A stretch of DNA of 28,562 bases from Dermatophilus congolensis (GTDB lineage Bacteria > Actinomycetota > Actinomycetes > Actinomycetales > Dermatophilaceae), in NCBI GenBank assembly GCA_030538115.1, contig JAUNUP010000036.1, forward strand, positions 1 through 28,562. Reading direction: 5' to 3'. Positions 1 to 28,562 of the stretch are shown here, piece by piece. The notes beneath the pieces were generated by a model. The model did not search any database. It had not been told where the DNA came from and worked only from the letters and a program-made list of their open reading frames with translations. Every line of letters begins with the position of its first letter. The stretch's first letter is position 1. The position numbers were made by a program, and so were the translations under genes.

Positions 1-290
1 CGTGGCACTGCTGCCGGTAGGCGAGATGTGCAGGGACATGTGCCACGGCACCTCCCAGCAGAAGTGCCACGGCACGGCGAGTCGGTCGCCGACCACCCCG
101 ACACAGGAGAAGCGCGTGCGCATCTGGTAGGTCCACACCACCCCGCACCCCGTACCCCGTGCCGTGGCACTGCTGCCGGTAGGCGAGATGTGCAGGGACA
201 TGTGCCACGGCACCTCCCAGCAGAAGTGCCACGGCACGGCGAGTCGGTCGCCGACCACCCCGACACAGGAGAAGCGCGTGCGCATCTGGT
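1..290 (+). repeat. Perfect 128-bp direct repeat, two copies
   Basis: Bases 1-128 and 163-290 are identical, with period 162 and a 34-base C-rich spacer (129-162). The left copy starts at the window edge, so more copies may lie outside. Each copy holds two GTGCCACGGCAC palindrome cores (40-51, 64-75; 202-213, 226-237). A core in opposite orientation heads the second copy (159-170) and is cut by the window edge in the first. Each copy ends with a good ribosome-binding sequence AGGAG, six bases, then GTG CGC ATC TGG and an immediate stop codon. The translated repeat in the forward frame is not protein-like. There is no gene here; this is the intergenic region downstream of the minus-strand gene that ends at 299. 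Confidence 0.95.
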
Positions 291-298
291 GAATCTGG

Positions 299-2746
299 TC
301 ACTCCCGAGTGGCGGGGATGGCGCCGATGAGCCGGTGCACCGAGAAGGTGCGCTGCTCGTCGGAGCCTTCCACGGTCCCGCGCACGCGGCCCGCCTCCAC
401 GTGAGCCGGGTGGAAGAGCAGGCGTGAGGTGCTGCCGTCGCCTGCAGCGAGCCCGATCCACACGGGCGTGGCGGTGGCGGTGGCCTCGCGGAGAACGTCG
501 AGGGTGACGGTCGGGTCGGTGGCCGAGATCCGGGGGCTGGTGGCGTCGGCGTTTTCGCGGCGGCTCAGGTGCTCGTCTCCGAGACGGAGCGCGATCACCG
601 CCCGCATCGCGTCTTCGCTGGTCACCTGGGTTGCATACAGGCGCGATGAGGGGCTCCAGGAGTGGCCGAGCCGGGCGTCGTTCGCCCGAACGGCCTTGGG
701 GCCGTCTGCCTCCACCCCGCCGCCGGCCCCTTCCGCCACGGGCGCGTGCCCGGCCTTGCGCAGGGTGGCGACGACGGTGCGTTTCGCTGCCGGCGAGGCG
801 AGCACGGTCGGGGCGAGGCGACGCAGGTGCAGGTCGCGCACGGCCTTGTCGTGCTCGGCCGCGTCGAGGGCGGAGACGTCGTCGCTGACGATGAACGTGC
901 TTAACGACCCGACCCGCAGGCGGCCGTGGCGTCGAGACACGTCGCGGACGAGGTACTCGAGCGGTTGAGGCACGCCCGCTGGTGCGCGGCGTTCGAGTGT
1001 GGCGAGCAGTTCGTCGGCGGTGGCGCCCGTGTCGAGGTGACGCCGCACGCTGTCGGCCGAGAACCGGAACACGGTTGCGCCACCGCGTGATTCGAGGTCG
1101 GCGGACGATCGGAGCAGGTCGGCGAGAGATCCGTCGAGGCGTCCGGGGACGACGGCGGTGAGGTCGGCCTGCAGCAGCAACTCGTGTGCGGCACGGGGCA
1201 GCGCGGACTCGAGGCCGGCGAGGGTGTCGGCGGCGTCGCGTAGCTCCGGCGGGTCCTGTTCGTCGGGGTGCGACAGGGTCTCTGCGGAGGTGTCGCCGGG
1301 GTTGCTCCGCCAGGCGCGCCACAACGCGGCCCCGGCGTCCGTGATGGCGACATTGCGCAGAACGCCTGCGGTGTCACCGAGATCCGCGGAGACACCGGTA
1401 TCCACGGAGACAAGGCCGAGCGCCGCGGCTTCACGAACCGCCATGCTCACCCCGTCGCGCAGTATCGCGGGGTCGCGACGCGGTTGCCGCCACGTGACCA
1501 GACTGAGCAGGTCATCGGAGCGGAGGGAGACGTCTCCGTGCTCGGCGCGCAGGCCCGCAAGTACGTGCAGCACCCCGTGGCGCACCGCCCGCACCATCGC
1601 CGACGACGCGGTTCTGCCGAACACGGCAGGCGGGATCACTGTGCTCTTCGACCCGGCGGAGGGTGGCGTGTCGCCGATGAGGCCGGGAGCCCGGTCGGTG
1701 CCGAACCACGCGAGCGCGAGCGAAGCCCAGCGCAGGGGTGCGTCGAGGCGGCGCCAGGCGTCGAAGGCCTGGGTGGGGGCGTAGACGAGGTCGTCGGAGC
1801 GGGAACCGCCGATCTCCACAGTGCCGACCAGCCCCGCTGCCCAGGCGAGTTCGAGCAGGATGATCGCATCGTCGCGCTCGAGGTCGAGGTGGGTGGCGAT
1901 GCGGCGCAGCTCGCGCACCCCGAGCGCGTCGGCCCGCAGCACCTTGGGTGGCTCCGCGCCGAGGTGGTGCCCGAGTTCGTCGACGCGTTCCAGCAGACCG
2001 TTCACGGCCGCGAGCGTCGAGGCGCGGGCCGCGTCGGTGACGGGGGTGAGCCGGGGAACGGGCGGCGACAGCGGAGTGCCTGGCGCGATGCGGCCACCGC
2101 GCAGAACGAGCGCGACGTGCCGGGGGAGTTGCACCCGGGTGCCACTGACGGGATCGAGCAGGTCGCGGGTCACGAGGGAGTCGACGGCCCGACGGAGTTC
2201 GTGGGGCGCTTCGGCCGTGAGCTCGCCGACCGGGGGGCCCCAGGTCATCGACTCCAGCAGGTGCCGCGCCTCGGGGGTGATGTCGCGCAGGAGGGCCTGG
2301 ACCTCGCGCGCGTCGTGCGCCGGCGTGGTGCCTGATGCGGGCGCGAGGCCGGCGACGTACGGGCCCAGCGCCTGCACCGTTGTGCCGGAGAACCGGTACC
2401 GCGCGCCTGCCTGCCAGACGAGTGCGAGTCGCCACAGGTGGTCGGCGACGGCGGTGAACTCGGCGCGGTCGACTCCGCACAGGGCGGCCGCATCGTCGAT
2501 GTCACCGTCGGCGACGACGAGGGCTTGCAGCGCTGTCAGGGCCCTTCCGTCGAGGGTGTCGAGGGCTCGGGCCACGCTCGCCGGGTTCGACGCCCGAGAA
2601 GCGAGCGTCGGGATATCGGACGACGGCGGCCGAGCCAAATCCGGCCGGGCGAGCAGCAGGTCGACGAGCTGAGCGTCGGTCCGAGCACGCAGGTCGTCGG
2701 AGAAAACCCCCCGCTTGTCGCCCCCCGATGTCTTCCGCGCACCCAC
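299..2746 (-). CDS. Helicase-associated domain protein (XPB/Ssl2 N-terminal-like)
   Basis: This 815-residue protein matches the actinobacterial family annotated as helicase-associated (Helicase_C_3, XPB/Ssl2 N-terminal-like), which often sits beside the DNA-repair helicase XPB. The best support is the segment around residues 520-650, starting LLLQADLTAVVPGRL and running into a winged-helix-like stretch (STFIVSDD near its end). The N-terminal half is helical and Leu/Ala/Arg-rich (RTDAQLVDLLLARPDL near the start). No Walker motif is visible, so it is not itself a helicase. The GTG at 2744-2746 is the first start after an in-frame TAG. A GGAGG lies only one base before it, too close to be ideal, so the true start may differ slightly. 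The family is known, but its molecular role is not established; a DNA-repair link is an inference from family context. Confidence 0.8.
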   Translation of the reverse strand: MGARKTSGGDKRGVFSDDLRARTDAQLVDLLLARPDLARPPSSDIPTLASRASNPASVARALDTLDGRALTALQALVVADGDIDDAAALCGVDRAEFTAVADHLWRLALVWQAGARYRFSGTTVQALGPYVAGLAPASGTTPAHDAREVQALLRDITPEARHLLESMTWGPPVGELTAEAPHELRRAVDSLVTRDLLDPVSGTRVQLPRHVALVLRGGRIAPGTPLSPPVPRLTPVTDAARASTLAAVNGLLERVDELGHHLGAEPPKVLRADALGVRELRRIATHLDLERDDAIILLELAWAAGLVGTVEIGGSRSDDLVYAPTQAFDAWRRLDAPLRWASLALAWFGTDRAPGLIGDTPPSAGSKSTVIPPAVFGRTASSAMVRAVRHGVLHVLAGLRAEHGDVSLRSDDLLSLVTWRQPRRDPAILRDGVSMAVREAAALGLVSVDTGVSADLGDTAGVLRNVAITDAGAALWRAWRSNPGDTSAETLSHPDEQDPPELRDAADTLAGLESALPRAAHELLLQADLTAVVPGRLDGSLADLLRSSADLESRGGATVFRFSADSVRRHLDTGATADELLATLERRAPAGVPQPLEYLVRDVSRRHGRLRVGSLSTFIVSDDVSALDAAEHDKAVRDLHLRRLAPTVLASPAAKRTVVATLRKAGHAPVAEGAGGGVEADGPKAVRANDARLGHSWSPSSRLYATQVTSEDAMRAVIALRLGDEHLSRRENADATSPRISATDPTVTLDVLREATATATPVWIGLAAGDGSTSRLLFHPAHVEAGRVRGTVEGSDEQRTFSVHRLIGAIPATRE

Positions 2747-7278: not shown

Positions 7279-7299
7279 ACCCGCGCGACCTCGGATCCC

Positions 7300-7423
7300 G
7301 TGCCGTGGCACAGGTGCTGGGAGGCGACGTCGGCGAGGGCATGTGCCACGGCAGAACCACCGACGAAGGTGCCGTGGCACAAGACCCCCGCCACCTCACC
7401 TACCAGCAGAAGTGCCACGGCAC
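7300..7423 (+). repeat. Cluster of GTGCCACGGCAC-type palindromic repeats
   Basis: Four copies at 7300-7311, 7343-7354 (one base changed), 7369-7380 and 7412-7423 alternate in orientation in the 249-base gap between deoA and deoC. The last copy is preceded by CAGCAGAA, exactly as the second core of the 128-bp repeat at the window start. Adjacent inverted copies could fold into hairpins within a deoA-deoC transcript. Confidence 0.88.
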
Positions 7424-7459
7424 GGGGGCTGGTCGCCGGACTCGCCGGTCACGAAAACC

Positions 7460-21309: not shown

Positions 21310-22560
21310 ATGCGCTCCAGACCGATGACCCTCACCGTGTCTGCCCTCGTTCTCGCCCCCGGCTTGGCGCTGACGCCTCCGGGGGCCTCGTTTGCCTTCT
21401 CCGAGGCCCCGTCAGCGGCGCAGCCGGCGGCAGGGCTCGTGCAGGCCGTGCCGGGTCTGCCCAAGGCCGACGGCGTAGTGGGGGAGCGGCGGATCCCGTT
21501 CACCGCCGCCGCAGGTGCCCAGGCCACGGGCGGCGCGCTCTCCGGTGGCGTCGCGGCCGCGGCGCGGGCCAAGAAGGTCATCGCCACCACGGCGACGGTC
21601 GCGATCTCGCGTGAGCTGGCCGTGGTCGGCGCCTCGTGGGCGAAGGACTCGGCTCCGGGCGCGGTGCTCCAGTACCGCCTCGAGTCGAACGGAAAGTGGG
21701 GCGCGTGGGAGACCAGCGACTCCGACCCGGCCATCGACGAGAGCAGTCGCAAGGGGGCCCGCGACGGCTCCGACGCGATCCCGGTGACCGGCGCCTCCCG
21801 CATCCAGGCACGCCTGGTGGGCACGACGGCGTCGCCGAAGGACGCGCGCCTGTCGATCCTGAGCCCCAGCGCCAGCGGCGACGACGCGTCTGCGGTCGCA
21901 GCGGCCTCGTCCGGCCGCGTGGCTGCAGCCGGTCTGCGCAGCGCCGCGGGCATGTCGGGCGGCGCAGCCGTCGCGGCGGTCATGCCGTCGCGCGATGCGG
22001 ACTTCCCGCCGATCCGCTCGCGGGGCATGTGGAAGGCGAACGAGAAGATCACGAAGAAGACCGAGGAGATGGAGGACCCGATCGGGTTCACCATCCACCA
22101 CACGGCGGGCACGAACGCCTACACCCAGTCGCAGGTGCCGCGGATTCTGCGCGGGATCCAGCAGTTCCACGTGAGAGACCGTGGTTGGAGCGACATCGGC
22201 TACAACTACCTCGTCGACAAGTGGGGCGGTATCTGGGAGGGGCGTAAGGGCAGCTTCGACGGCACCCCGCGCGGCGCCCACACCGCCCGCATGAACGACC
22301 AGCTGGTCGGCATCTCGCTCATCGGTGACTACCAGAAGGTCCGCCCGTCGGCCGCGGCCGTCGAGCGCATCGCGAAGATCGTGGCGTGGAAGTCGCGGGT
22401 CATCGATGTCGACCCGACCGGCACGATGGAGCTCAACGACCGCGAGCGTCCCGTGGTGGTCGGTCACCGCGACGTCAACCCGACGACCTGCCCCGGCCGG
22501 TACCTGTACGCGAAGCTGCCCACGATTCGCGAGCGGGCGGCTGAACTGCGCGAAGACTGA
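21310..22560 (+). CDS. Secreted PGRP/N-acetylmuramoyl-L-alanine amidase
   Basis: A 416-residue exported protein. The N-terminus is a short basic region followed by hydrophobic LTVSALVLAPGLALTPPGASFA, a signal peptide. Residues 35-250 form an Ala/Gly/Ser-rich part that includes a beta-like segment (AVLQYRLESNGKWGAWETSD), seen in corynebacterial-type cell-wall amidases. The catalytic PGRP/amidase-2 domain occupies about 250-405, with zinc ligands in IHHTAG (His263 region), GHRDVN and TTCPG (Cys about 393). It should cut the bond between N-acetylmuramic acid and L-alanine. The start has AAGGA seven bases upstream. It ends at a strong terminator and is the last chromosomal gene before the integrated element. 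Confidence 0.93.
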   Translation: MRSRPMTLTVSALVLAPGLALTPPGASFAFSEAPSAAQPAAGLVQAVPGLPKADGVVGERRIPFTAAAGAQATGGALSGGVAAAARAKKVIATTATVAISRELAVVGASWAKDSAPGAVLQYRLESNGKWGAWETSDSDPAIDESSRKGARDGSDAIPVTGASRIQARLVGTTASPKDARLSILSPSASGDDASAVAAASSGRVAAAGLRSAAGMSGGAAVAAVMPSRDADFPPIRSRGMWKANEKITKKTEEMEDPIGFTIHHTAGTNAYTQSQVPRILRGIQQFHVRDRGWSDIGYNYLVDKWGGIWEGRKGSFDGTPRGAHTARMNDQLVGISLIGDYQKVRPSAAAVERIAKIVAWKSRVIDVDPTGTMELNDRERPVVVGHRDVNPTTCPGRYLYAKLPTIRERAAELRED

Positions 22561-22592
22561 CCGCGACTCGCGGATGACCTGCGGACTCGACG

Positions 22593-22622
22593 AAGGCCCC
22601 GACTCGATGGAGTCGGGGCCTT
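22593..22622 (+). terminator. Amidase terminator, perfect 12-bp stem
   Basis: AAGGCCCCGACT (22593-22604) pairs with AGTCGGGGCCTT (22611-22622) around a 6-base loop. It lies between the amidase stop and the tRNA-Arg remnant and can serve transcripts from both sides. Confidence 0.88.
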
Positions 22623-22631
22623 CGGTGTCGG

Positions 22632-22678
22632 CGCCCCCGGCAGGATTCGAACCTGCGCTCCCGCCTCCGGAGGGCGGG
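22632..22678 (-). other. attachment site: 3' part of tRNA-Arg(CCG)
   Basis: Read on the minus strand, this is the 3' portion of a tRNA: anticodon stem-loop (22677-22661, anticodon CCG at 22670-22668), variable loop, T arm with TTCGAAT loop (22656-22640) and acceptor strand CGGGGGC (22639-22633). Upstream, where the D arm and 5' acceptor strand should be, the sequence is unrelated. It is therefore a remnant left by site-specific integration, with the crossover near the anticodon. The core is about 45 bases, a usual length for AICE att sites. Confidence 0.85.
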
Positions 22679-22810
22679 TTGCGGTGCAGTTCAGTCGGTC
22701 TGACTCGAAAGGATTTCGAACTGGTGCTCAACCGCTTCATGCGGGAGCTGCGGGTGGGGCTTACCCGATTTGTCTGATGGGTGCCGGGGTTCGCTTACGT
22801 GGGGAGAAAA

Positions 22811-22843
22811 GCGGCGAGGTCCCAACCCGAGGGACCTCGCCGC
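22811..22843 (-). terminator. Terminator of the 110-residue cargo gene
   Basis: GCGGCGAGGTCCC (22811-22823) pairs perfectly with GGGACCTCGCCGC (22831-22843) around a 7-base loop, and on the minus strand it is followed by TTTTC. It starts eight bases after the cargo gene stop. Confidence 0.9.
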
Positions 22844-22850
22844 GTCTGGC

Positions 22851-23183
22851 CTAGTCGAGTAGTCCTGCCCTGAGCGCTGCCAGGGCCACATCGATCCGGA
22901 CGAAGATCTCCGCGTTCTCGCGCGTCTGATCGTCGCTCGGTTCGACTCCGATCGCTCCGCCCTTCGGGTCGGCTCGCTTCAAGAAGTCCTCAACGTCCCT
23001 CAGCTCCGCTCGTGTGACGCTCTGCGGGTCCAAGTTGTATGCCTTCTGGATGTCCTGCTTGGCCTTGTAGAGCCACAGATACCCCACCTTTGGGTCGGTC
23101 TTGACGCTTGCCCCAAGCACGAGAGCGCGAAGCATGCGCCAGTCGGACGGGGAGAAGTGGGAGAACGAAAATTCGGTCGTCAT
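22851..23183 (-). CDS. AICE cargo protein of unknown function
   Basis: A 110-residue acidic protein with no recognised domain. It is mostly helical by composition: WRMLRALVLGASVK, YLWLYKAKQDIQKAYNL, VTRAELRDVEDFLKRA and ENAEIFVRIDVALAALRAGLLD. No signal peptide, membrane segment or metal motif is seen. The start at 23183 has AGGAG about seven bases upstream. It is separated from the integrase gene by its own promoter region and ends in a strong terminator, so it is a stand-alone unit beside the att site. In that spot, AICEs often carry accessory functions such as defence or regulation, but nothing here identifies one. Confidence 0.75.
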   Translation of the reverse strand: MTTEFSFSHFSPSDWRMLRALVLGASVKTDPKVGYLWLYKAKQDIQKAYNLDPQSVTRAELRDVEDFLKRADPKGGAIGVEPSDDQTRENAEIFVRIDVALAALRAGLLD

Positions 23184-23241
23184 TCAAGCGCTCCTGCTCT
23201 GACCTGGTGAGACCGATTTCTCGGCCGCACTGTCTTGCTGA

Positions 23242-23278
23242 CATCGGTTAGCCTAGCCCACGCAGAGCCGGATGGCTA
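23242..23278 (-). promoter_or_regulatory. Promoter P2 of the cargo gene, twin of P1
   Basis: On the minus strand: TAGCCA (23278-23273), 17 bases, TAGGCT (23255-23250), five bases, ATG (23244-23242). Three blocks match P1 of the HTH operon: GCCATCC at the -35, TAG[A/G]CT at the -10, and GATGTCAGCAA at the start region. Part of it (GGCTAGGCTAACC) also resembles the DtxR/IdeR box. Confidence 0.7.
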
Positions 23279-23311
23279 CATGTAGTTCAGGCACATATTG
23301 AGTGATCCGCG

Positions 23312-24451
23312 TCACGTTTCCTTGTGAGTCGTAGATGGCGGCGGGGGGACGCGGACTCCCGCTGTCGCGTCGCCGACTGCGCGGCGCGCGAGATCGTCGA
23401 GAGTCGGTGCGAGAGCGAGTGCGTCCCGAGCGGCGACGTATGCCGTGAGCGTCTGAGACGGGTGGCTGTGGCCCAGGAGGGACTGAACGTCTTTCAGGGT
23501 CATGCCGCCCTGCAGGGCTAATGTCGCGGCCGTTCGTCTGAGAACGTGCCAGCCGGTGCAGTCCGGCACGCTCGCTGCATCGCTAGCCTTGATGAGCGCC
23601 CTTCGGCTGCTGTGATAGTTCAATCGCTGCCCAGACGCTGTGGTGAACAACGGGCCTTGCCGACCTCGGCTGATGCGCCCGAGTAAGGGCCTCAATGCGA
23701 GCGGCAGAGCGACTGCTCGTGCCCCCGCCGTGCTCTTCGGAGCCTTGACGACATAGGTGCCTTGGCCGCGCGCGAGCGACGTACGGACGTGGACCAGACC
23801 ATTGCCGAGATCGAGGTCGCCGACGTTGAGTGCGGCGATCTCTCCCCATCGAAGCCCTAGCACGCCTCCAAAAAGGAACTGAGCACGAAGTGCATCGTTG
23901 TCGCCGGTGGTGGCGACGAGCCTCGCCAGCTCATCCGTGCTGAGAGTTCGCCCCATGCGCCAGGCAGCCTTTCTGACTGAGACGCCGACCGACGGGTCGG
24001 GGGCATCGGTCAAGCCGGAGCGTTGCGCCTCGATCCACGTCGCGCGGAAGACCGCTAGAGCCTTGACCTGGGTGCTTGGGCCGACGTGGTTGGTGTGCAT
24101 CTCGGTCATCCAGTCGAGAACCGCACTGCGGTTGATCTCATCGAAAGACCAGACTTCCCAGCGACCGAGGTAGTTAGCGGCGACGCCCTCGAAGCGAGCT
24201 GCGCTTCCAGGAGACCAGCGAAGACGGCCAAGGGCCAACGCGGCGGGAAGTGCGTCGCCGAACGTGGGGCGCGGGGCGGGGGCGACGCCCGCTACTTCGC
24301 GAGTCTGGTTGCGTCCGTCCCGACCTGCGTCAAGGACGCTGCGCGTCGCTGCGCGATGGCCTGCGGCCACCCTTGACCCAGGCCGTGCCGCACGCTGGGG
24401 GCTGGATATCGGCCGTCGCCCCCTTCCTGGCATCACCGGGTTCGAGGTCAT
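23312..24451 (-). CDS. int: Tyrosine site-specific integrase
   Basis: A 379-residue phage-type integrase that recombines the element with the tRNA-Arg site. The catalytic set is complete: Arg201 (GLRWGEIAAL), a lysine in VVKAPKS (236 or 239), His302 and Arg305 (WHVLRR), His328 (LLGHSHPSQT) and nucleophile Tyr338 (LTAYVAARD). Residues 62-160 form the SAM-like core-binding domain; the first 60 residues are an Arg/Pro-rich extension. Its ATG overlaps the stop of the 58-residue gene (ATGA), so it is the last member of the coupled operon. It lies about 650 bases from the att site, with only the cargo gene between. Confidence 0.93.
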   Translation of the reverse strand: MTSNPVMPGRGRRPISSPQRAARPGSRVAAGHRAATRSVLDAGRDGRNQTREVAGVAPAPRPTFGDALPAALALGRLRWSPGSAARFEGVAANYLGRWEVWSFDEINRSAVLDWMTEMHTNHVGPSTQVKALAVFRATWIEAQRSGLTDAPDPSVGVSVRKAAWRMGRTLSTDELARLVATTGDNDALRAQFLFGGVLGLRWGEIAALNVGDLDLGNGLVHVRTSLARGQGTYVVKAPKSTAGARAVALPLALRPLLGRISRGRQGPLFTTASGQRLNYHSSRRALIKASDAASVPDCTGWHVLRRTAATLALQGGMTLKDVQSLLGHSHPSQTLTAYVAARDALALAPTLDDLARRAVGDATAGVRVPPPPSTTHKET

Positions 24452-24624
24452 CGGCCCTCCTCGTGGTATTCGTCTTCGGTGAGAGCGGTGATCTGGATCG
24501 TGAGGTAGGTGTCTCCGGTCGGGAGAAAGTCGGTCAGGTCTGGGTATTCCGGCAGGTCGATGAGCGTCACCCCGCGTTGGAGTGGGGACACGTAGGCGCG
24601 TCCGTCGTAGGCGAATGTGTTCAT
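24448..24624 (-). CDS. 58-residue AICE protein in the xis position
   Basis: A small acidic protein beginning MNTFAYDGRAYVSPLQRG and ending LTEDEYHEEGR, with a beta-like middle (YLTIQITALTED). It overlaps both neighbours by ATGA junctions, transfer ATPase before and integrase after, and has AAGGGG upstream. In pSAM2-like elements this slot usually holds the excisionase, but no helix-turn-helix or basic wing is visible. An unrelated small protein, or an excisionase partner that does not bind DNA itself, is possible. Longer readings to 24735 lack a start signal. Confidence 0.7.
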   Translation of the reverse strand: MNTFAYDGRAYVSPLQRGVTLIDLPEYPDLTDFLPTGDTYLTIQITALTEDEYHEEGR

Positions 24625-25970
24625 GTCACATCCCCTTCCAGGGTGATAAGGCGTGGTGGGAGGAGTTGTTCGAGGTCGGTGGCGAGACCGCGATGGCGTG
24701 TGGCGAGGTCTTTGCGGACCTCCTCTGGCACCCACCAGGCGCGAACGAATTCCGGGCCGTCGCCGCAGTCAGTGACGGCCACCCCTCGCTGCTCGCGGCG
24801 GATGCGAGTGGGCGTGATCTGTTCGTCCTCTCGAGCGCTGTCGCCGAGAGACGCCCTCGCCTGCTCGTCGGTGGCGCAGCGGAATGCGATTTTTCCGGGG
24901 CACGCATCTCGAATTTGCGTCGGCACGGCATCCGCCGTGGGTTTCTGAGTGCCGGGCACCATGACGATCCCGGCGGCGCGGCCTAGTCGTGCGAGCCGCG
25001 ATAGCAGGCGAACCCGTTCGGCTGCGAGATCCTTGTCTTCCTTGCTTGGGCTTTCGGGGGTGCAGACTTCGGCGACCTCATCGACCACGGTGAGAAGCAA
25101 CGGCCGGAACCGGCTGTAACCGAGATCCCGCGCGCTCACGAGTCCTGCGGCTCGGAGTTCGCTCATGCGGCGCACGCGGATCTCTTCCAGCGCGCGGAGA
25201 ACCTGCGTCGCCTCGTCGGTGGTCTCGGCGAATGCCGACGCTCTCGGTTCCCACACGCCGAGTTCGACGCCGCCCTTCATGTCGAGTAGGACGAGTGCGA
25301 CCTCGGGTCGAGAGATAACGGAGCCGATGAGCGCCGCCAGAAAGCTGCTCTTTCCAGAGCCAGGCTCGCCGCCGACGAAAACGGATCGATCGAGCGGGAC
25401 GAGCCATCGGCTGCCGTCTTCGCGGATGCCGACGACCGCTTGCAGGTCGTCATCGGCAACCTGCACCTGGTCTGCTCCGGCGATGAAGTTGCTGCTCGCC
25501 CACGGGTCACGAAGGAGCGCCCTGAGTTCGACTTTTCCTGCGTCTGCCTCTCGAATGCGTACCGGCGCACGCCACGCACATCCGATCGCTTCCCCTGCCC
25601 TTCGGTAGTCCTTTACCGAGGTTCCGGCAACGGGGCGGACCAACACCGAAGCCGCTGCTTTGGTTCCGCGAACCTGGATTCGGGGAACCTGGATCTCGCC
25701 GCTTGGTCGCTTCTCAACGAGGTCGCATCCGCGGGCGAGCCGAGGCCAGGTCCAAAGCCACAACCAAGCGCGGAAGCTGCCAGCAAGCCGGAGCGACCAG
25801 GCAGTGATGAGCGCGAGCACAATGCCACTCATCAGTAGGATTGCCGTGATCGTTTCGTGGTATTCGACTACGACCGCGATCAGCCCGAGGACCGCCACCG
25901 CATGCGCCTGCCAGGGAACGGCGGTGGCGGTCCTCTTCGCTATCGCGGCGATCTGTCTCGCCGCTGACAT
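24621..25970 (-). CDS. FtsK/SpoIIIE-type DNA transfer ATPase (TraSA-like)
   Basis: A 449-residue motor of the FtsK-HerA family. Two membrane helices lie at about residues 22-37 and 41-60, then the ATPase domain: Walker A GEPGSGKS (201-208), Walker B VLLDMKG (228-234), a second acidic site VVDEVAE (295-301) and TQKPTADAVPTQIRD (341-355), all FtsK-typical. It lacks the long N-terminal membrane domain of chromosomal FtsK, fitting the AICE transfer protein that moves double-stranded DNA between mycelial or clumped cells. The 62-residue gene stop overlaps its start (TGATG). It should be essential for conjugative transfer. Confidence 0.92.
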   Translation of the reverse strand: MSAARQIAAIAKRTATAVPWQAHAVAVLGLIAVVVEYHETITAILLMSGIVLALITAWSLRLAGSFRAWLWLWTWPRLARGCDLVEKRPSGEIQVPRIQVRGTKAAASVLVRPVAGTSVKDYRRAGEAIGCAWRAPVRIREADAGKVELRALLRDPWASSNFIAGADQVQVADDDLQAVVGIREDGSRWLVPLDRSVFVGGEPGSGKSSFLAALIGSVISRPEVALVLLDMKGGVELGVWEPRASAFAETTDEATQVLRALEEIRVRRMSELRAAGLVSARDLGYSRFRPLLLTVVDEVAEVCTPESPSKEDKDLAAERVRLLSRLARLGRAAGIVMVPGTQKPTADAVPTQIRDACPGKIAFRCATDEQARASLGDSAREDEQITPTRIRREQRGVAVTDCGDGPEFVRAWWVPEEVRKDLATRHRGLATDLEQLLPPRLITLEGDVT

Positions 25971-26158
25971 CAGTTCTCCGCAGAGGTGGCGAGGTCGATG
26001 TCCTCGCGCATCTGCCGTGCGATGCGTGCCAGGCCCTCGGTGTCAGGGCCAAGCCCGTCCGCCATTAGCGCGAGTTCCTCGAAAGTCGCGAGGACCGTGC
26101 GGAGGAATCTCACTCCATTCGGCGGAAGTGTGATCGTCAGTCCTGCATCGTCGCTCAT
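25970..26158 (-). CDS. 62-residue AICE protein of unknown function
   Basis: A small acidic protein. It begins MSDDAGLTITLPPNGVRFL and then appears all-helical (RTVLATFEELALMADGL, then GLARIARQMREDIDLA). Start overlaps the Pra-like gene stop (ATGA) and its stop overlaps the transfer ATPase start (TGATG), so it is co-translated with both. No domain is recognised. Its position suggests an accessory role in transfer or replication. Confidence 0.72.
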   Translation of the reverse strand: MSDDAGLTITLPPNGVRFLRTVLATFEELALMADGLGPDTEGLARIARQMREDIDLATSAEN

Positions 26159-26490
26159 GCCGCGCTCCTCTCTGGTCGCTGTGTGGCGGGCTCGACTGCT
26201 TCCGCGCTCCAGGCGAGACCGCTTCGTCCGTTCGTGTCCCAGTGCATGACTCGGCAGCCGATGAGGCGAACGAGCGTGCCTTGCGGAATCTCGAGAACGG
26301 CGGTGCCCGGCACGGTGATCCGGACCATGCCGCTCTCGCCAGCGGCTTCGTCACTGATGTACACGTCAGCCGTGGATTTCTCCACGCCGTTCGCGTCTCG
26401 TTGCACTTCGCCTGTGAGGCGATTGGCCTTCGGTTCTGCCTTGAGCAGAAAAACCGTGCAACCACTCAGGTCGACCTTTGGGCGCCTCAT
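26155..26490 (-). CDS. Pra-like replication/excision activator (putative)
   Basis: A 111-residue protein. Order of features: a short beta start (VDLSGCTVFLLKAEPKA), TGEVQRDANGVEKSTADVYI, then VRITVPGTAV, GTLVRLIGCRVMHWDT and GLAWSAEAVEPA. The pattern of a small beta-barrel with TGE-x-x-D-x-x-G near the front resembles proteins annotated as plasmid replication, integration and excision activator (Pra) in pSAM2-type elements; the match is by eye and weak. The ATG at 26490 overlaps the HTH gene stop (ATGA). A longer reading to 26880 lies inside the HTH gene in another frame and is not real. Confidence 0.7.
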   Translation of the reverse strand: MRRPKVDLSGCTVFLLKAEPKANRLTGEVQRDANGVEKSTADVYISDEAAGESGMVRITVPGTAVLEIPQGTLVRLIGCRVMHWDTNGRSGLAWSAEAVEPATQRPERSAA

Positions 26491-27137
26491 GACGATTTCC
26501 CGGCGATGAACGGCGACGTGTTGACGGTGGGGAACGTCGGCCAGAACGTGCTGCGTGGTCCGCCTCCGGCGTTCAGCCGGGACTTCGCGAAAGGTGCTGC
26601 CCACCACGGGTTTACGTTTGCGAGAGTGAAGCTCACGTCTCGGGAGTCCGTCTCGCGGTGAATCTCCACGATTTCGGCCGCGAAGCCGACGAGTCCGCGA
26701 ACCGTTACCAAGAAGGGCATGCCTCCTTCGCGCTGGATGATGTCCCGCATGCCGACCTCTGCCCGGTCGGAGATCGTCCACCAGCGATCGAAGCCGCGCC
26801 AGTCGCCGTTGGCCGCTGTCTGAGCGTTGAAGCCCATCGGGCCTGTCTCCGGTGTGGGGCGAGGTGTCTCCGGTCGGCATCGCGCCACGAACACGGGGGA
26901 GCGTTGCAGGTAGTCGCCGACGTTGCGAGGTATGTCGGCGATGGTCTCGATGACCTTCGTGTTCGCGAGTTCGTGTGTGGCTTCATCGCTGATGAAGATG
27001 CCGGACGGTGTGTTGGTGGTCTCGCCTGCGAGTCCTGCTGCGACCCAGGATTCGATGATGGGCCGACTCATGCCGACTGCCTTGGCGACGGACCTGAGAC
27101 TCTGCATTCCTGCCTCCCTGATCGTCTTTGCTGACAT
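26487..27137 (-). CDS. HTH protein heading the AICE operon
   Basis: A 216-residue protein with an excisionase/MerR-type helix-turn-helix near residues 14-38 (SLRSVAKAVGMSRPIIESWV, then AAGL) and a short wing (SGIFISDEA). The rest (about 60-216) is unfamiliar: Trp-rich segments FDRWWTISDRAE and NPWWAAPFAKSR, plus VTVRGLVGFAAEIVEIH. The HTH slot could be a regulator or a large excisionase. The ATG at 27137 comes five bases after a -10 box without a ribosome-binding site, so it is probably leaderless. It heads the coupled run to int, which makes self-regulation through P1/P2 plausible. Confidence 0.8.
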   Translation of the reverse strand: MSAKTIREAGMQSLRSVAKAVGMSRPIIESWVAAGLAGETTNTPSGIFISDEATHELANTKVIETIADIPRNVGDYLQRSPVFVARCRPETPRPTPETGPMGFNAQTAANGDWRGFDRWWTISDRAEVGMRDIIQREGGMPFLVTVRGLVGFAAEIVEIHRETDSRDVSFTLANVNPWWAAPFAKSRLNAGGGPRSTFWPTFPTVNTSPFIAGKSS

Positions 27138-27171
27138 CAGTGAGTCTAGTCTGGCTAGTGAAGGATGGCAA
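27135..27171 (-). promoter_or_regulatory. Promoter P1 of the AICE operon, leaderless
   Basis: On the minus strand: TTGCCA (27171-27166), exactly 17 bases, TAGACT (27148-27143), five bases, ATG (27137-27135). No ribosome-binding site is present, so the message should start at the ATG. An inverted repeat GATGGC-AATA-GCCATC (27164-27179) overlaps the -35 and may be an operator. Confidence 0.75.
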
Positions 27172-27216
27172 TAGCCATCGACGACACGTTTTAGATCTTG
27201 ATCTCGCGCTCGGCCT

Positions 27217-28536
27217 TCACAGGAGCCGTCCAGCCGAGTGGCACCAGCGCCGCACTGCGGCTGTCGCCGCGTCTAGTGGTTCACCTGTGGCGAGAGGGGG
27301 AGGGGTTTCTGCGTCGATGAGGTGGGACAGCAGGGCATCGGTTGTTCCGTCGTATCCCTGGTTGAGGAAGGTCCACACTCGCGGAGAGCATGCGTGATCT
27401 TGTTCTCCATGCCAGGCGCGGCGAGCCGCGCGACATGTGGTGAACGTGACCGTGGACCACGAGCGCGAGCGTCGGAGTGGCCAGCCCGAGTAGCCGAGAG
27501 CGCGATGGCGAGGTGAGCGGCAGGGATGTCGCGGCGGGTTCTCGGGGTCATCGGTGCCACAGCGGGGGCAGGAGATGTCCGCTGCCACCTGACAGTCAAC
27601 GATGTGATCCGACGAGTCGCCGTCGCCGGTGAGCAGGTCTTTCGTGACGTACGCGAGCGATTTCTTGATGTAACCGATCGTGCGACGCGCATGGCGGTGG
27701 TCATCGCCGGGCGTCACGATGATCTCGGCGATGCACTGAGCGCCCCAGGCCATCTCGCGCCCCTGGAATCGTGTTGAAGAGGCCGCGACCTCCTTCTCGA
27801 TCACGCGGGAGCGACGGCGCTCCGAGCTGTCGGTGTAGAGGTCGAGCGTCACCCAGCCCGGCAGGCGAACGAGCAGGTGGAAGTGGACTGCGCCGCGCGA
27901 CTGCATCTCGGCCACGCCCGCGTACGCCAATCTGCCCTCTAGGCCGAGTGAGCGTGTAAGGCGGGTCGCGGTCCTGTTCCACAGGCGACCGGTCCCGCTG
28001 TTCCACGCGGCTTGTCCCTGGTAGTCGTAGGCCGCGACATCGAGCGGCGTGCCCGCGATGGAGTCACCGGGCTCGTGTCGAACGCCGCAACGGCAGGCTG
28101 ACCGAGCAGCGCGGATGCGCCAGGCGCGCTGCGCCGAAGCCGACAGGCGCGGAGACGCCTCCGGCTTCGGAACCCGATGCACTCGTCCGAACGACGGCGC
28201 GGTGAGCGTGAGCATGACGACCACCGCCGTCTTATCTACGTCGAGTGCGCCAGATCTCAGGATCGCCGCAGCGTCGCCGCCATACAGTGCCGCACAACTT
28301 GGACACGCTGCGCGCCTGCGAGACCCACAGCGAACCTCGATGGTCTCTCCGCTCTCATCCCTGAGTCGGAGCGGGCGTGAACAGGGGAGAGAGATCCCGA
28401 GCTTTTCTAGGTCTGCATAAGACTTCTTTACCGGGTCAAGAGCGTCGGCCTCACCGGCGCTCCGGGCTCCGCCCTGCCCGCCGGCCCAGGCCGCCGCCGG
28501 CCCCGCCGGGGGCGCGTTGGAGCTTCGCCTGGCCAC
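27217..28536 (-). CDS. RepSA-like rolling-circle replication initiator
   Basis: A protein of at least 439 residues. From the N-terminus: a Gly/Ala-rich start, PCSRPLRLR and CPSCAALYGGDAA (zinc-like cysteines), ARSACRCGVRHEPGD then GTPLDVAAYDYQGQAAWN, the metal motif AVHFHLLVRL (HxH of the HUH class) and GYIKKSLAYVTKDL carrying the conserved Lys/Tyr region with the probable nicking tyrosine. Near the end, HRALGYSGWP and AARRAWHGEQ match the family tail. RepSA of pSAM2 nicks a double-strand origin to start rolling-circle replication after excision. The GTG at 28536 is the earliest start in the window, but the frame stays open to the edge, so the true start may lie outside. Confidence 0.88.
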   Translation of the reverse strand: MARRSSNAPPAGPAAAWAGGQGGARSAGEADALDPVKKSYADLEKLGISLPCSRPLRLRDESGETIEVRCGSRRRAACPSCAALYGGDAAAILRSGALDVDKTAVVVMLTLTAPSFGRVHRVPKPEASPRLSASAQRAWRIRAARSACRCGVRHEPGDSIAGTPLDVAAYDYQGQAAWNSGTGRLWNRTATRLTRSLGLEGRLAYAGVAEMQSRGAVHFHLLVRLPGWVTLDLYTDSSERRRSRVIEKEVAASSTRFQGREMAWGAQCIAEIIVTPGDDHRHARRTIGYIKKSLAYVTKDLLTGDGDSSDHIVDCQVAADISCPRCGTDDPENPPRHPCRSPRHRALGYSGWPLRRSRSWSTVTFTTCRAARRAWHGEQDHACSPRVWTFLNQGYDGTTDALLSHLIDAETPPPLATGEPLDAATAAVRRWCHSAGRLL

Positions 28537-28562
28537 ACCTGCACTCTCAGGGGTCAGACCGC

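What the first reader, a model, noticed from the sequence alone, without database searches (positions are those of the whole stretch)
23242..27171. Twin promoters for the AICE operon and the cargo gene
P1 and P2 share a -35 with GCCATCC, an exact 17-base spacer, TAG[A/G]CT, an exact 5-base gap and GATGTCAGCAA running past the ATG, though 3.9 kb apart and otherwise unrelated. Conservation downstream of the start argues for a shared operator rather than chance. The cargo protein is thus probably expressed together with excision and transfer, or repressed with them. This could mark an unknown element-linked function.
Basis: partly seen in the sequence, partly recalled or inferred. Interest (0 to 1): 0.72.

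Follow-up and report, generated by a model that had tools for sequence, protein, structure and literature searches.

The report
Matching promoters for transfer and cargo
In a small mobile DNA element of an actinobacterium, the promoter of the transfer genes and the promoter of an unknown passenger gene share the same short sequence over the predicted transcription start, which suggests that one switch controls both, although this has not been tested at the bench.

Summary
P1 (27171-27128) and P2 (23278-23235), both on the minus strand, match at 30 of 42 positions, in three blocks (GCCATCC, TAGNCT, GATGTCAGCAA) at identical spacing; the spacer is at background. Between the two promoter regions 0 of 6000 shuffles reach this; searched over the whole 5.9 kb element it is weaker (2 of 60).

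The element is a pSAM2-type AICE. P1 heads a tightly overlapping operon: 216-aa orphan, Pra-like regulator (not noted in the finding), 62 aa, Tra, 58 aa, Int. P2 and a strong terminator enclose one 110-aa orphan gene.

One premise is corrected: P2's ATG is not the cargo start. The cargo begins 61 nt downstream behind its own Shine-Dalgarno, so the shared block is probably DNA around +1, not protein code.

Best reading (0.5): a common Kor-type operator over both start sites puts the cargo in the element's regulon; in Streptomyces a KorSA-like regulator's site covers the pra start site. No binder is identified: the 216-aa protein matches no HTH family, and the composite was found in none of 25 other AICE-region loci, with one partial echo (L211). 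Interesting, but an ordinary kind of regulon.

The parts
27143..27171 (-). P1 promoter: TTGCCA, 17-nt spacer, TAGACT
   Evidence: only sigma-70-like hit in 22560-28562, 0.3 expected in shuffles; sequence
27128..27138 (-). P1 shared block GATGTCAGCAA over the predicted transcription start (candidate operator)
   Evidence: exact 11-mer match to P2 at the same distance from -10
26487..27137 (-). 216-aa orphan ORF, first gene of the P1 operon; likelier start ATG 27107, behind GGGAGG 27118-27113; in the position of korSA
   Evidence: only its own contig's protein found; no family match; HTH-like N-terminus judged by eye only
26155..26490 (-). 111-aa Pra-like regulator (SCO3933 family)
   Evidence: NF051478 E 1e-15, 57.8 bits, below the curated cut-off of 80
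25970..26158 (-). 62-aa ORF; its stop overlaps the tra start as TGATG
   Evidence: translation and coordinates; no NCBIfam match
24621..25970 (-). Tra: FtsK/SpoIIIE-type transfer protein
   Evidence: PF01580 46.5 bits; NF041214 TraB E 5e-13, below its cut-off
25963..25972 (-). third TGATGTCAGC, at the tra start
24448..24624 (-). 58-aa ORF between tra and int
   Evidence: no family match
23312..24451 (-). tyrosine integrase, last gene of the P1 operon
   Evidence: PF00589 57.7 bits; phrog_1 E 2e-37
23250..23278 (-). P2 promoter: TAGCCA, 17-nt spacer, TAGGCT
   Evidence: matched to P1; below the scan threshold
23235..23245 (-). P2 shared block GATGTCAGCAA (candidate operator)
22851..23183 (-). 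cargo: 110-aa orphan protein, AGGAG 23195-23191 ahead of ATG
   Evidence: coding-like GC by position 0.62/0.41/0.80; only itself found; model unusable, pLDDT 45
22811..22843 (-). intrinsic terminator after the cargo (13-pair stem, then TTTT)
22632..22690 (-). 3' part of a tRNA-Arg (extent approximate, anticodon CCG read by eye): left attachment site of the element
   Evidence: Rfam tRNA match 22632-22748, 27.3 bits against a gathering score of 29; ARAGORN finds no intact tRNA
27217..28560 (-). RepSA-type replication initiator, upstream of P1, cut by the contig end
   Evidence: PF20199 186 bits; NF041486 E 2e-34, below its cut-off

Best explanation
P1 and P2 are two promoters of one pSAM2-type AICE carrying copies of the same operator, which lies over the predicted transcription start (GATGTCAGCAA, about -2 to +9), perhaps with a second contact at GCCATCC next to the -35. 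A Kor-type repressor of the element, either the 216-aa first gene of the P1 operon or one encoded beyond the contig end, sits there while the element is quiet and blocks both the operon that carries the Pra-like activator, Tra and Int, and the single-gene cargo unit. When repression lifts, the cargo is expressed together with excision and transfer; read-through from int into the cargo could add to this, since no terminator was found between them. Shown: the matched sequences and spacing, the two units and the terminator as sequence features, the Pra-like gene. Inferred: transcription start sites, the repressor, the repression.
For: Matched blocks at identical spacing with a background spacer; beyond chance between the two promoter regions. 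P2's ATG does not start the cargo and its frame is not coding-like, so the block is conserved as DNA or 5' UTR. Every junction of the P1 operon overlaps by 1 to 4 bases (216 aa-Pra-62 aa-Tra-58 aa-Int; coordinates), so P1 can serve one transcript. A Pra-like gene is in that operon. In Streptomyces the KorSA-like SCO3932 binds its own promoter and that of pra (SCO3933), and its site K2 covers the start site of pra; KorSA of pSAM2 binds its own and the pra promoter (PMC8584621, passages and section 6 read). The AICE L211, with the same gene order, has TTGCTT-17-TACAGT-GAAC-GTGTCAGC before its HTH/pra operon, with the SD-led ATG 37 nt on.
Against: No binder identified: the 216-aa protein matches no HTH family. 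The block is not a clear dyad (CTGA/TCAG in P1, imperfect in P2; by eye). The footprinted SCO3932 motif, allowing 2 mismatches, is not at P1 or P2. The composite TAGNCT-N4-GATGTCAGC occurs in 1 of 392 sampled genomes of the order, as often as its reversed control (1), and in 0 of 25 AICE-region loci; 72 viral stretches with it carry at most 4 of 7 letters of the GCCATCC block. Among the 25 loci the looser TANNNT-N4-7-TGTCAGC is in L211 alone, and L211's promoter region as a whole aligns with P1 or P2 no better than shuffles. GATGTCAGC also sits at the tra start.
Confidence: 0.5

Rival explanations
1. Diverged duplication: the cargo got its promoter by copying the P1 region, and the two still resemble each other without a shared regulator being needed today.
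For: Same strand, same order of blocks, and a gapped alignment extends a few letters past the block.
Against: A plain old duplication should decay evenly; here the spacer is at background (5/14) while the outer blocks are 7/7 and 11/11, which needs selection on the blocks. Block edges were chosen after the fact.
Confidence: 0.17
2. Chance plus the ordinary shape of actinobacterial promoters: a -35, 17 nt and TANNNT followed by a coincidental 11-mer.
For: Searched over the whole element, 2 of 60 shuffles reach the same identity. GATGTCAGC occurs a third time at tra, and ATGTCAGC twice in the 22.6 kb of chromosome here. P2's hexamers are weak.
Against: 0 of 6000 shuffles and 3 of 12000 real upstream pairs reach it between promoter regions; the next best profile score listed in the window is 15 of 23.
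Confidence: 0.18
3. Leaderless starts: the shared block is a 5' start codon plus Met-Ser-Ala codons at the very end of the mRNA, so the resemblance is about translation.
For: TANNNT boxes peak just ahead of ATG in a related genome, and more than twenty percent of actinobacterial genes are predicted leaderless (PMC3160421, passages). P1's ATG is in frame with the 216-aa ORF. L211 has GTG-TCA-GCT at the same place. M. tuberculosis boxes centre 7-12 bp from the start site (PMC3898074, passages), which allows a start at this A.
Against: The box-to-ATG distance is 5 nt at both sites, while the peak in Mobilicoccus is 6-7 (22 of 200 candidate starts; 1 of 200 at 5). P2's frame is not coding-like and is out of frame with the cargo; in L211 the GTG is out of frame with the SD-led gene. 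Both genes have SD-led starts downstream.
Confidence: 0.12
4. A binding site for another element protein (integrase arm, excisionase, Rep or Tra) that happens to overlap promoters.
For: P1 lies just downstream of rep and has an inverted repeat GATGGC-TATT-GCCATC over the -35 (by eye, sequence).
Against: P2 is about 0.6 kb and P1 about 4.5 kb from the attachment site; that inverted repeat is not at P2.
Confidence: 0.03

Closest known systems
KorSA/Pra control of pSAM2 (Streptomyces ambofaciens) and SCO3932/SCO3933 of S. coelicolor
   Same: One AICE, Pra-type gene, more than one promoter of the element bound by one regulator, and in S. coelicolor a site over the pra start site (PMC8584621, passages and section 6).
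   Different: The gene ahead of pra here is not GntR by any model tried; the SCO3932 motif is absent at P1 and P2; here int and tra lie in the same operon as the Pra-like gene, whereas in pSAM2 Pra activates a repSA-xis-int operon; the second target is a passenger gene.
   Same: rep - HTH gene - Pra-like - small ORF - tra - small ORF - int order; RTGTCAGC 4-5 nt after a TANNNT box before the HTH/pra operon.
   Different: Rep, Tra and Int about 31-34 percent identical where they match; the HTH gene is unrelated in sequence; no gene found between int and the att repeat; no twin promoter seen.

Membership tests
pSAM2-type AICE | RepSA-type replication initiator | tested here: met
   PF20199 186 bits over a cut-off of 34; NCBIfam RepSA equivalog below its cut-off (119 of 700)
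pSAM2-type AICE | single FtsK/SpoIIIE-type transfer protein | tested here: met
   PF01580 46.5 bits over a cut-off of 24
pSAM2-type AICE | tyrosine integrase and insertion at a tRNA gene | tested here: met
   PF00589; truncated tRNA at 22632, below Rfam's gathering score. The other end is outside the contig.
pSAM2-type AICE | Pra regulator | tested here: inconclusive
   NF051478 E 1e-15 over the full model, but 57.8 bits against a cut-off of 80
pSAM2-type AICE | excisionase (Xis) | tested here: inconclusive
   No Xis recognised among the element ORFs scanned; the element is cut by the contig end
KorSA-type repressor circuit | GntR-family repressor gene in the element | tested here: not met
   No GntR match in the window part of the element; the rest of the element is not held
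KorSA-type repressor circuit | repressor bound at the pra promoter start site | not testable with these tools
   Needs footprinting; only sequence matching was done
Leaderless transcript start | TANNNT 6-7 nt ahead of a genuine start codon | tested here: not met
   5 nt at both sites; P2's ATG opens a frame that is not coding-like. A start at that A is not excluded by other data

The most novel reading that the evidence does not exclude
The element uses a new, non-GntR Kor-type repressor (the 216-aa orphan), with an operator over the start site, to lock an orphan passenger gene into the same on/off state as its own excision and transfer, so the passenger acts only in cells where the element is active or has just arrived, for example as an entry or incompatibility factor.
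Probability: 0.15. Interest if true: 0.55.

Novelty: new member of a known kind. Interest (0 to 1): 0.36.

Why it matters
What passenger genes of small AICEs do is mostly unknown (my own judgement, not from a call). A passenger that shares an operator with the transfer operon would be predicted to work during excision or transfer rather than for the resting host, which narrows the tests. It would also give an example, outside the GntR family, of one repressor over several promoters of an AICE.

Tried and rejected
Relatives of the 216-aa protein and of the cargo: none in 5.8 billion proteins except the window's own (the search needs shared 5-residue words). The one genome match of the 216-aa protein (1 of 186 genomes, E 3.6e-5, L164, a stop inside) was dropped after listing its ORFs. 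Rep as query found nothing in genome contigs or viral contigs. Tra by alignment gave 80 distant viral loci at 22-30 percent, not used further. Structure models of both orphans are unusable (pLDDT 45 and 33), so no fold search was run. PDB sequence matches were noise. A second copy of L211's HTH family in G332 (L277, 48 percent) has TACCAT-TAAC-GTGCCACGG ahead of its gene, only partly like L211. Of the 7 genomes with a Pra-like match, all of whose regions were fetched, only G332 (L211) has TANNNT-N4-7-TGTCAGC. RNA fold of the P2 leader: z -1.8, nothing notable.

My first pattern scans carried one N too many and so did not match P1 or P2 themselves: 2 of 396 genomes against 3 control hits, and 32 viral stretches. 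Found on checking, and repeated with the right spacing: 1 of 392 genomes against 1 control hit, 72 viral stretches; 17 of the 73 matches open a frame of 60 codons or more at the ATG, 7 lie in loci of at least 55 percent GC, 54 of the cores are distinct, and none has the GCCATCC block. The conclusion did not change, nor did the odds.

Literature: no paper held 4 of 5 terms on a shared cargo operator in an ICE, and none held Mobilicoccus with 'integrative and conjugative'; that is all I searched on novelty. PMC8584621: passages and section 6 read. PMC3218068, PMC3160421, PMC3898074: passages. Other papers were seen in search listings only. The pSAM2 primary papers were not read.
Full report
What is there. 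From about 22632 to the contig end lies the left part of an integrated AICE. A truncated tRNA marks its left edge (Rfam 27.3 bits at 22632-22748, below the gathering score of 29; no intact tRNA by ARAGORN). On the minus strand, from the contig end inward, it carries a RepSA-type initiator, a 216-aa ORF, a 111-aa ORF, a 62-aa ORF, an FtsK-type Tra, a 58-aa ORF, a tyrosine integrase and a 110-aa 'cargo' ORF. The chromosome belongs to a relative of Mobilicoccus: its thymidine phosphorylase is 82 percent identical to those of two Mobilicoccus species, the best of the 80 loci kept. The Pfam identities are RepSA PF20199 186 bits, FtsK PF01580 46.5 bits and Phage_integrase PF00589 57.7 bits. The 111-aa ORF, not mentioned in the finding, matches the SCO3933 family of regulators over the full model (E 1e-15, 57.8 bits, below the curated cut-off of 80). 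SCO3933 is called pra in an AICE remnant of S. coelicolor (PMC8584621, passages read).

The two promoters. P1 reads TTGCCA-17-TAGACT-CACT-GATGTCAGCAA, P2 TAGCCA-17-TAGGCT-AACC-GATGTCAGCAA. P1 is the only sigma-70-like hit in 22560-28562, where 0.3 are expected; P2 falls below that threshold. Over 42 positions 30 match, in blocks: 7/7, spacer 5/14, -10 5/6, gap 2/4, start block 11/11; flanks of 60 nt match 17 and 10 times.

Is it chance? Against all of the 5.9 kb element, 2 of 60 shuffles produce a pair as good, so as an unprompted repeat it is only moderately unusual. Between the two promoter regions it is strong: 0 of 6000 shuffles (largest 28), 3 of 12000 sampled pairs of real upstream regions of a related genome, 0 and 1 of 2000 with gaps under two scorings. 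TAGNCT-N4-GATGTCAGC is in the window twice and in none of 100 shuffles. A profile of the 23 shared letters scores at most 15 elsewhere among the listed places of the window and at most 16 in 0.55 Mb, both strands, of control stretches and AICE loci. All these patterns were drawn up after seeing the pair.

What the block is not. At P2 this fails: the frame opened by that ATG has GC 0.74/0.55/0.46 by codon position, against 0.62/0.41/0.80 for the cargo, which starts 61 nt later behind AGGAG. At P1 a better start (27107) also lies downstream, behind GGGAGG. A leaderless start is a serious alternative in Actinobacteria (PMC3160421 and PMC3898074, passages). In 20 stretches of a Mobilicoccus genome, TANNNT boxes peak 6-7 nt ahead of ATG (14 and 8 of 200 candidate starts), with 1 of 200 at the 5 nt seen here. 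The M. tuberculosis data place the box centre 7-12 bp from the start site, so a start at that A is not excluded. I take the block to be DNA around +1 and the start of a 5' UTR.

A third GATGTCAGC lies at the tra start (25972-25963), within the TGATG that joins the 62-aa ORF to tra, with no promoter found upstream. ATGTCAGC occurs 3 times in the element and twice in the 22.6 kb of chromosome in the window, but never in 400 kb of Mobilicoccus. So the short word is not rare in this genome and is weak evidence alone; the composite carries the weight.

Transcription units. All five junctions from the 216-aa ORF to int overlap by 1 to 4 bases (coordinates), so P1 can give one transcript through int. 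A strong terminator (13-pair stem then TTTT, 22843-22811) follows the cargo, and none is found between int and P2. The cargo is therefore a unit of its own that could also receive read-through from P1.

Mechanism. In pSAM2 KorSA binds its own promoter and that of pra; in S. coelicolor the KorSA-like SCO3932 has a site (K2) over the pra start site (PMC8584621). Here P1 precedes an operon with a Pra-like gene, and the gene in the korSA position is the 216-aa orphan. The simplest reading is a Kor-type operator over both start sites, so that the cargo is silenced and released with the transfer operon. This is inference: the 216-aa protein has no family match and no usable model, its HTH look is by eye, the SCO3932 motif is at neither site, and a repressor could also lie beyond the contig end.

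Relatives. Tra matches at E 1e-12 or better in 23 of 396 genomes of the order, at 28-38 percent identity; Pra-like genes in 7 of 392. The composite pattern is in 1 of 392 genomes, with 1 hit for its reversed control; two earlier scans with one N too many are told under Tried and rejected. It is in 0 of 25 AICE-region loci (444 kb; all 9 and all 16). In the same loci TANNNT-N4-7-TGTCAGC occurs once, in L211, against a mean of 0.29 for 105 permuted words, so one hit as such is not remarkable. Its place is: ahead of the HTH/pra operon of an AICE with the same gene order, TTGCTT-17-TACAGT-GAAC-GTGTCAGC. I noticed it by eye before running the scan. The L211 region as a whole aligns with P1 or P2 no better than shuffles. 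L211 has no gene found between int and the att repeat, so the cargo looks like an addition in our element. I count L211 as a hint, not a footprint.

Verdict. The shared-operator reading is the best supported at about 0.5. The setting is ordinary for AICEs, and the unusual part is a passenger gene apparently tied to the transfer operon.

Noticed in passing
window 26155-26490 (-): Pra-like regulator (NF051478, 57.8 bits, below cut-off) inside the P1 operon, without a Pfam match.
   Followed up: yes
window 25963-25972 (-): Third TGATGTCAGC at the tra start, in a TGATG stop/start overlap.
   Followed up: yes
L211 6817-12136: Small AICE bounded by an exact 45-nt repeat, rep-HTH-pra-tra-71aa-int, with GTGTCAGC after a TANNNT box ahead of the HTH gene.
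   Followed up: partly
L277 (G332:C18, near 1775): Second gene of the L211 HTH family (48 percent) in the same genome, promoter TTGACA-18-TACCAT-TAAC-GTGCCACGG.
   Followed up: partly
window 1-330 and 7286-7424: Close direct repeats in the chromosomal part (42/42 between windows starting at 1 and 163; 35/42 between 197 and 7383).
   Followed up: no
window 27164-27179 (-): Inverted repeat GATGGC-TATT-GCCATC over the P1 -35; P2 has the palindrome CTACATGTAG there instead (by eye).
   Followed up: no
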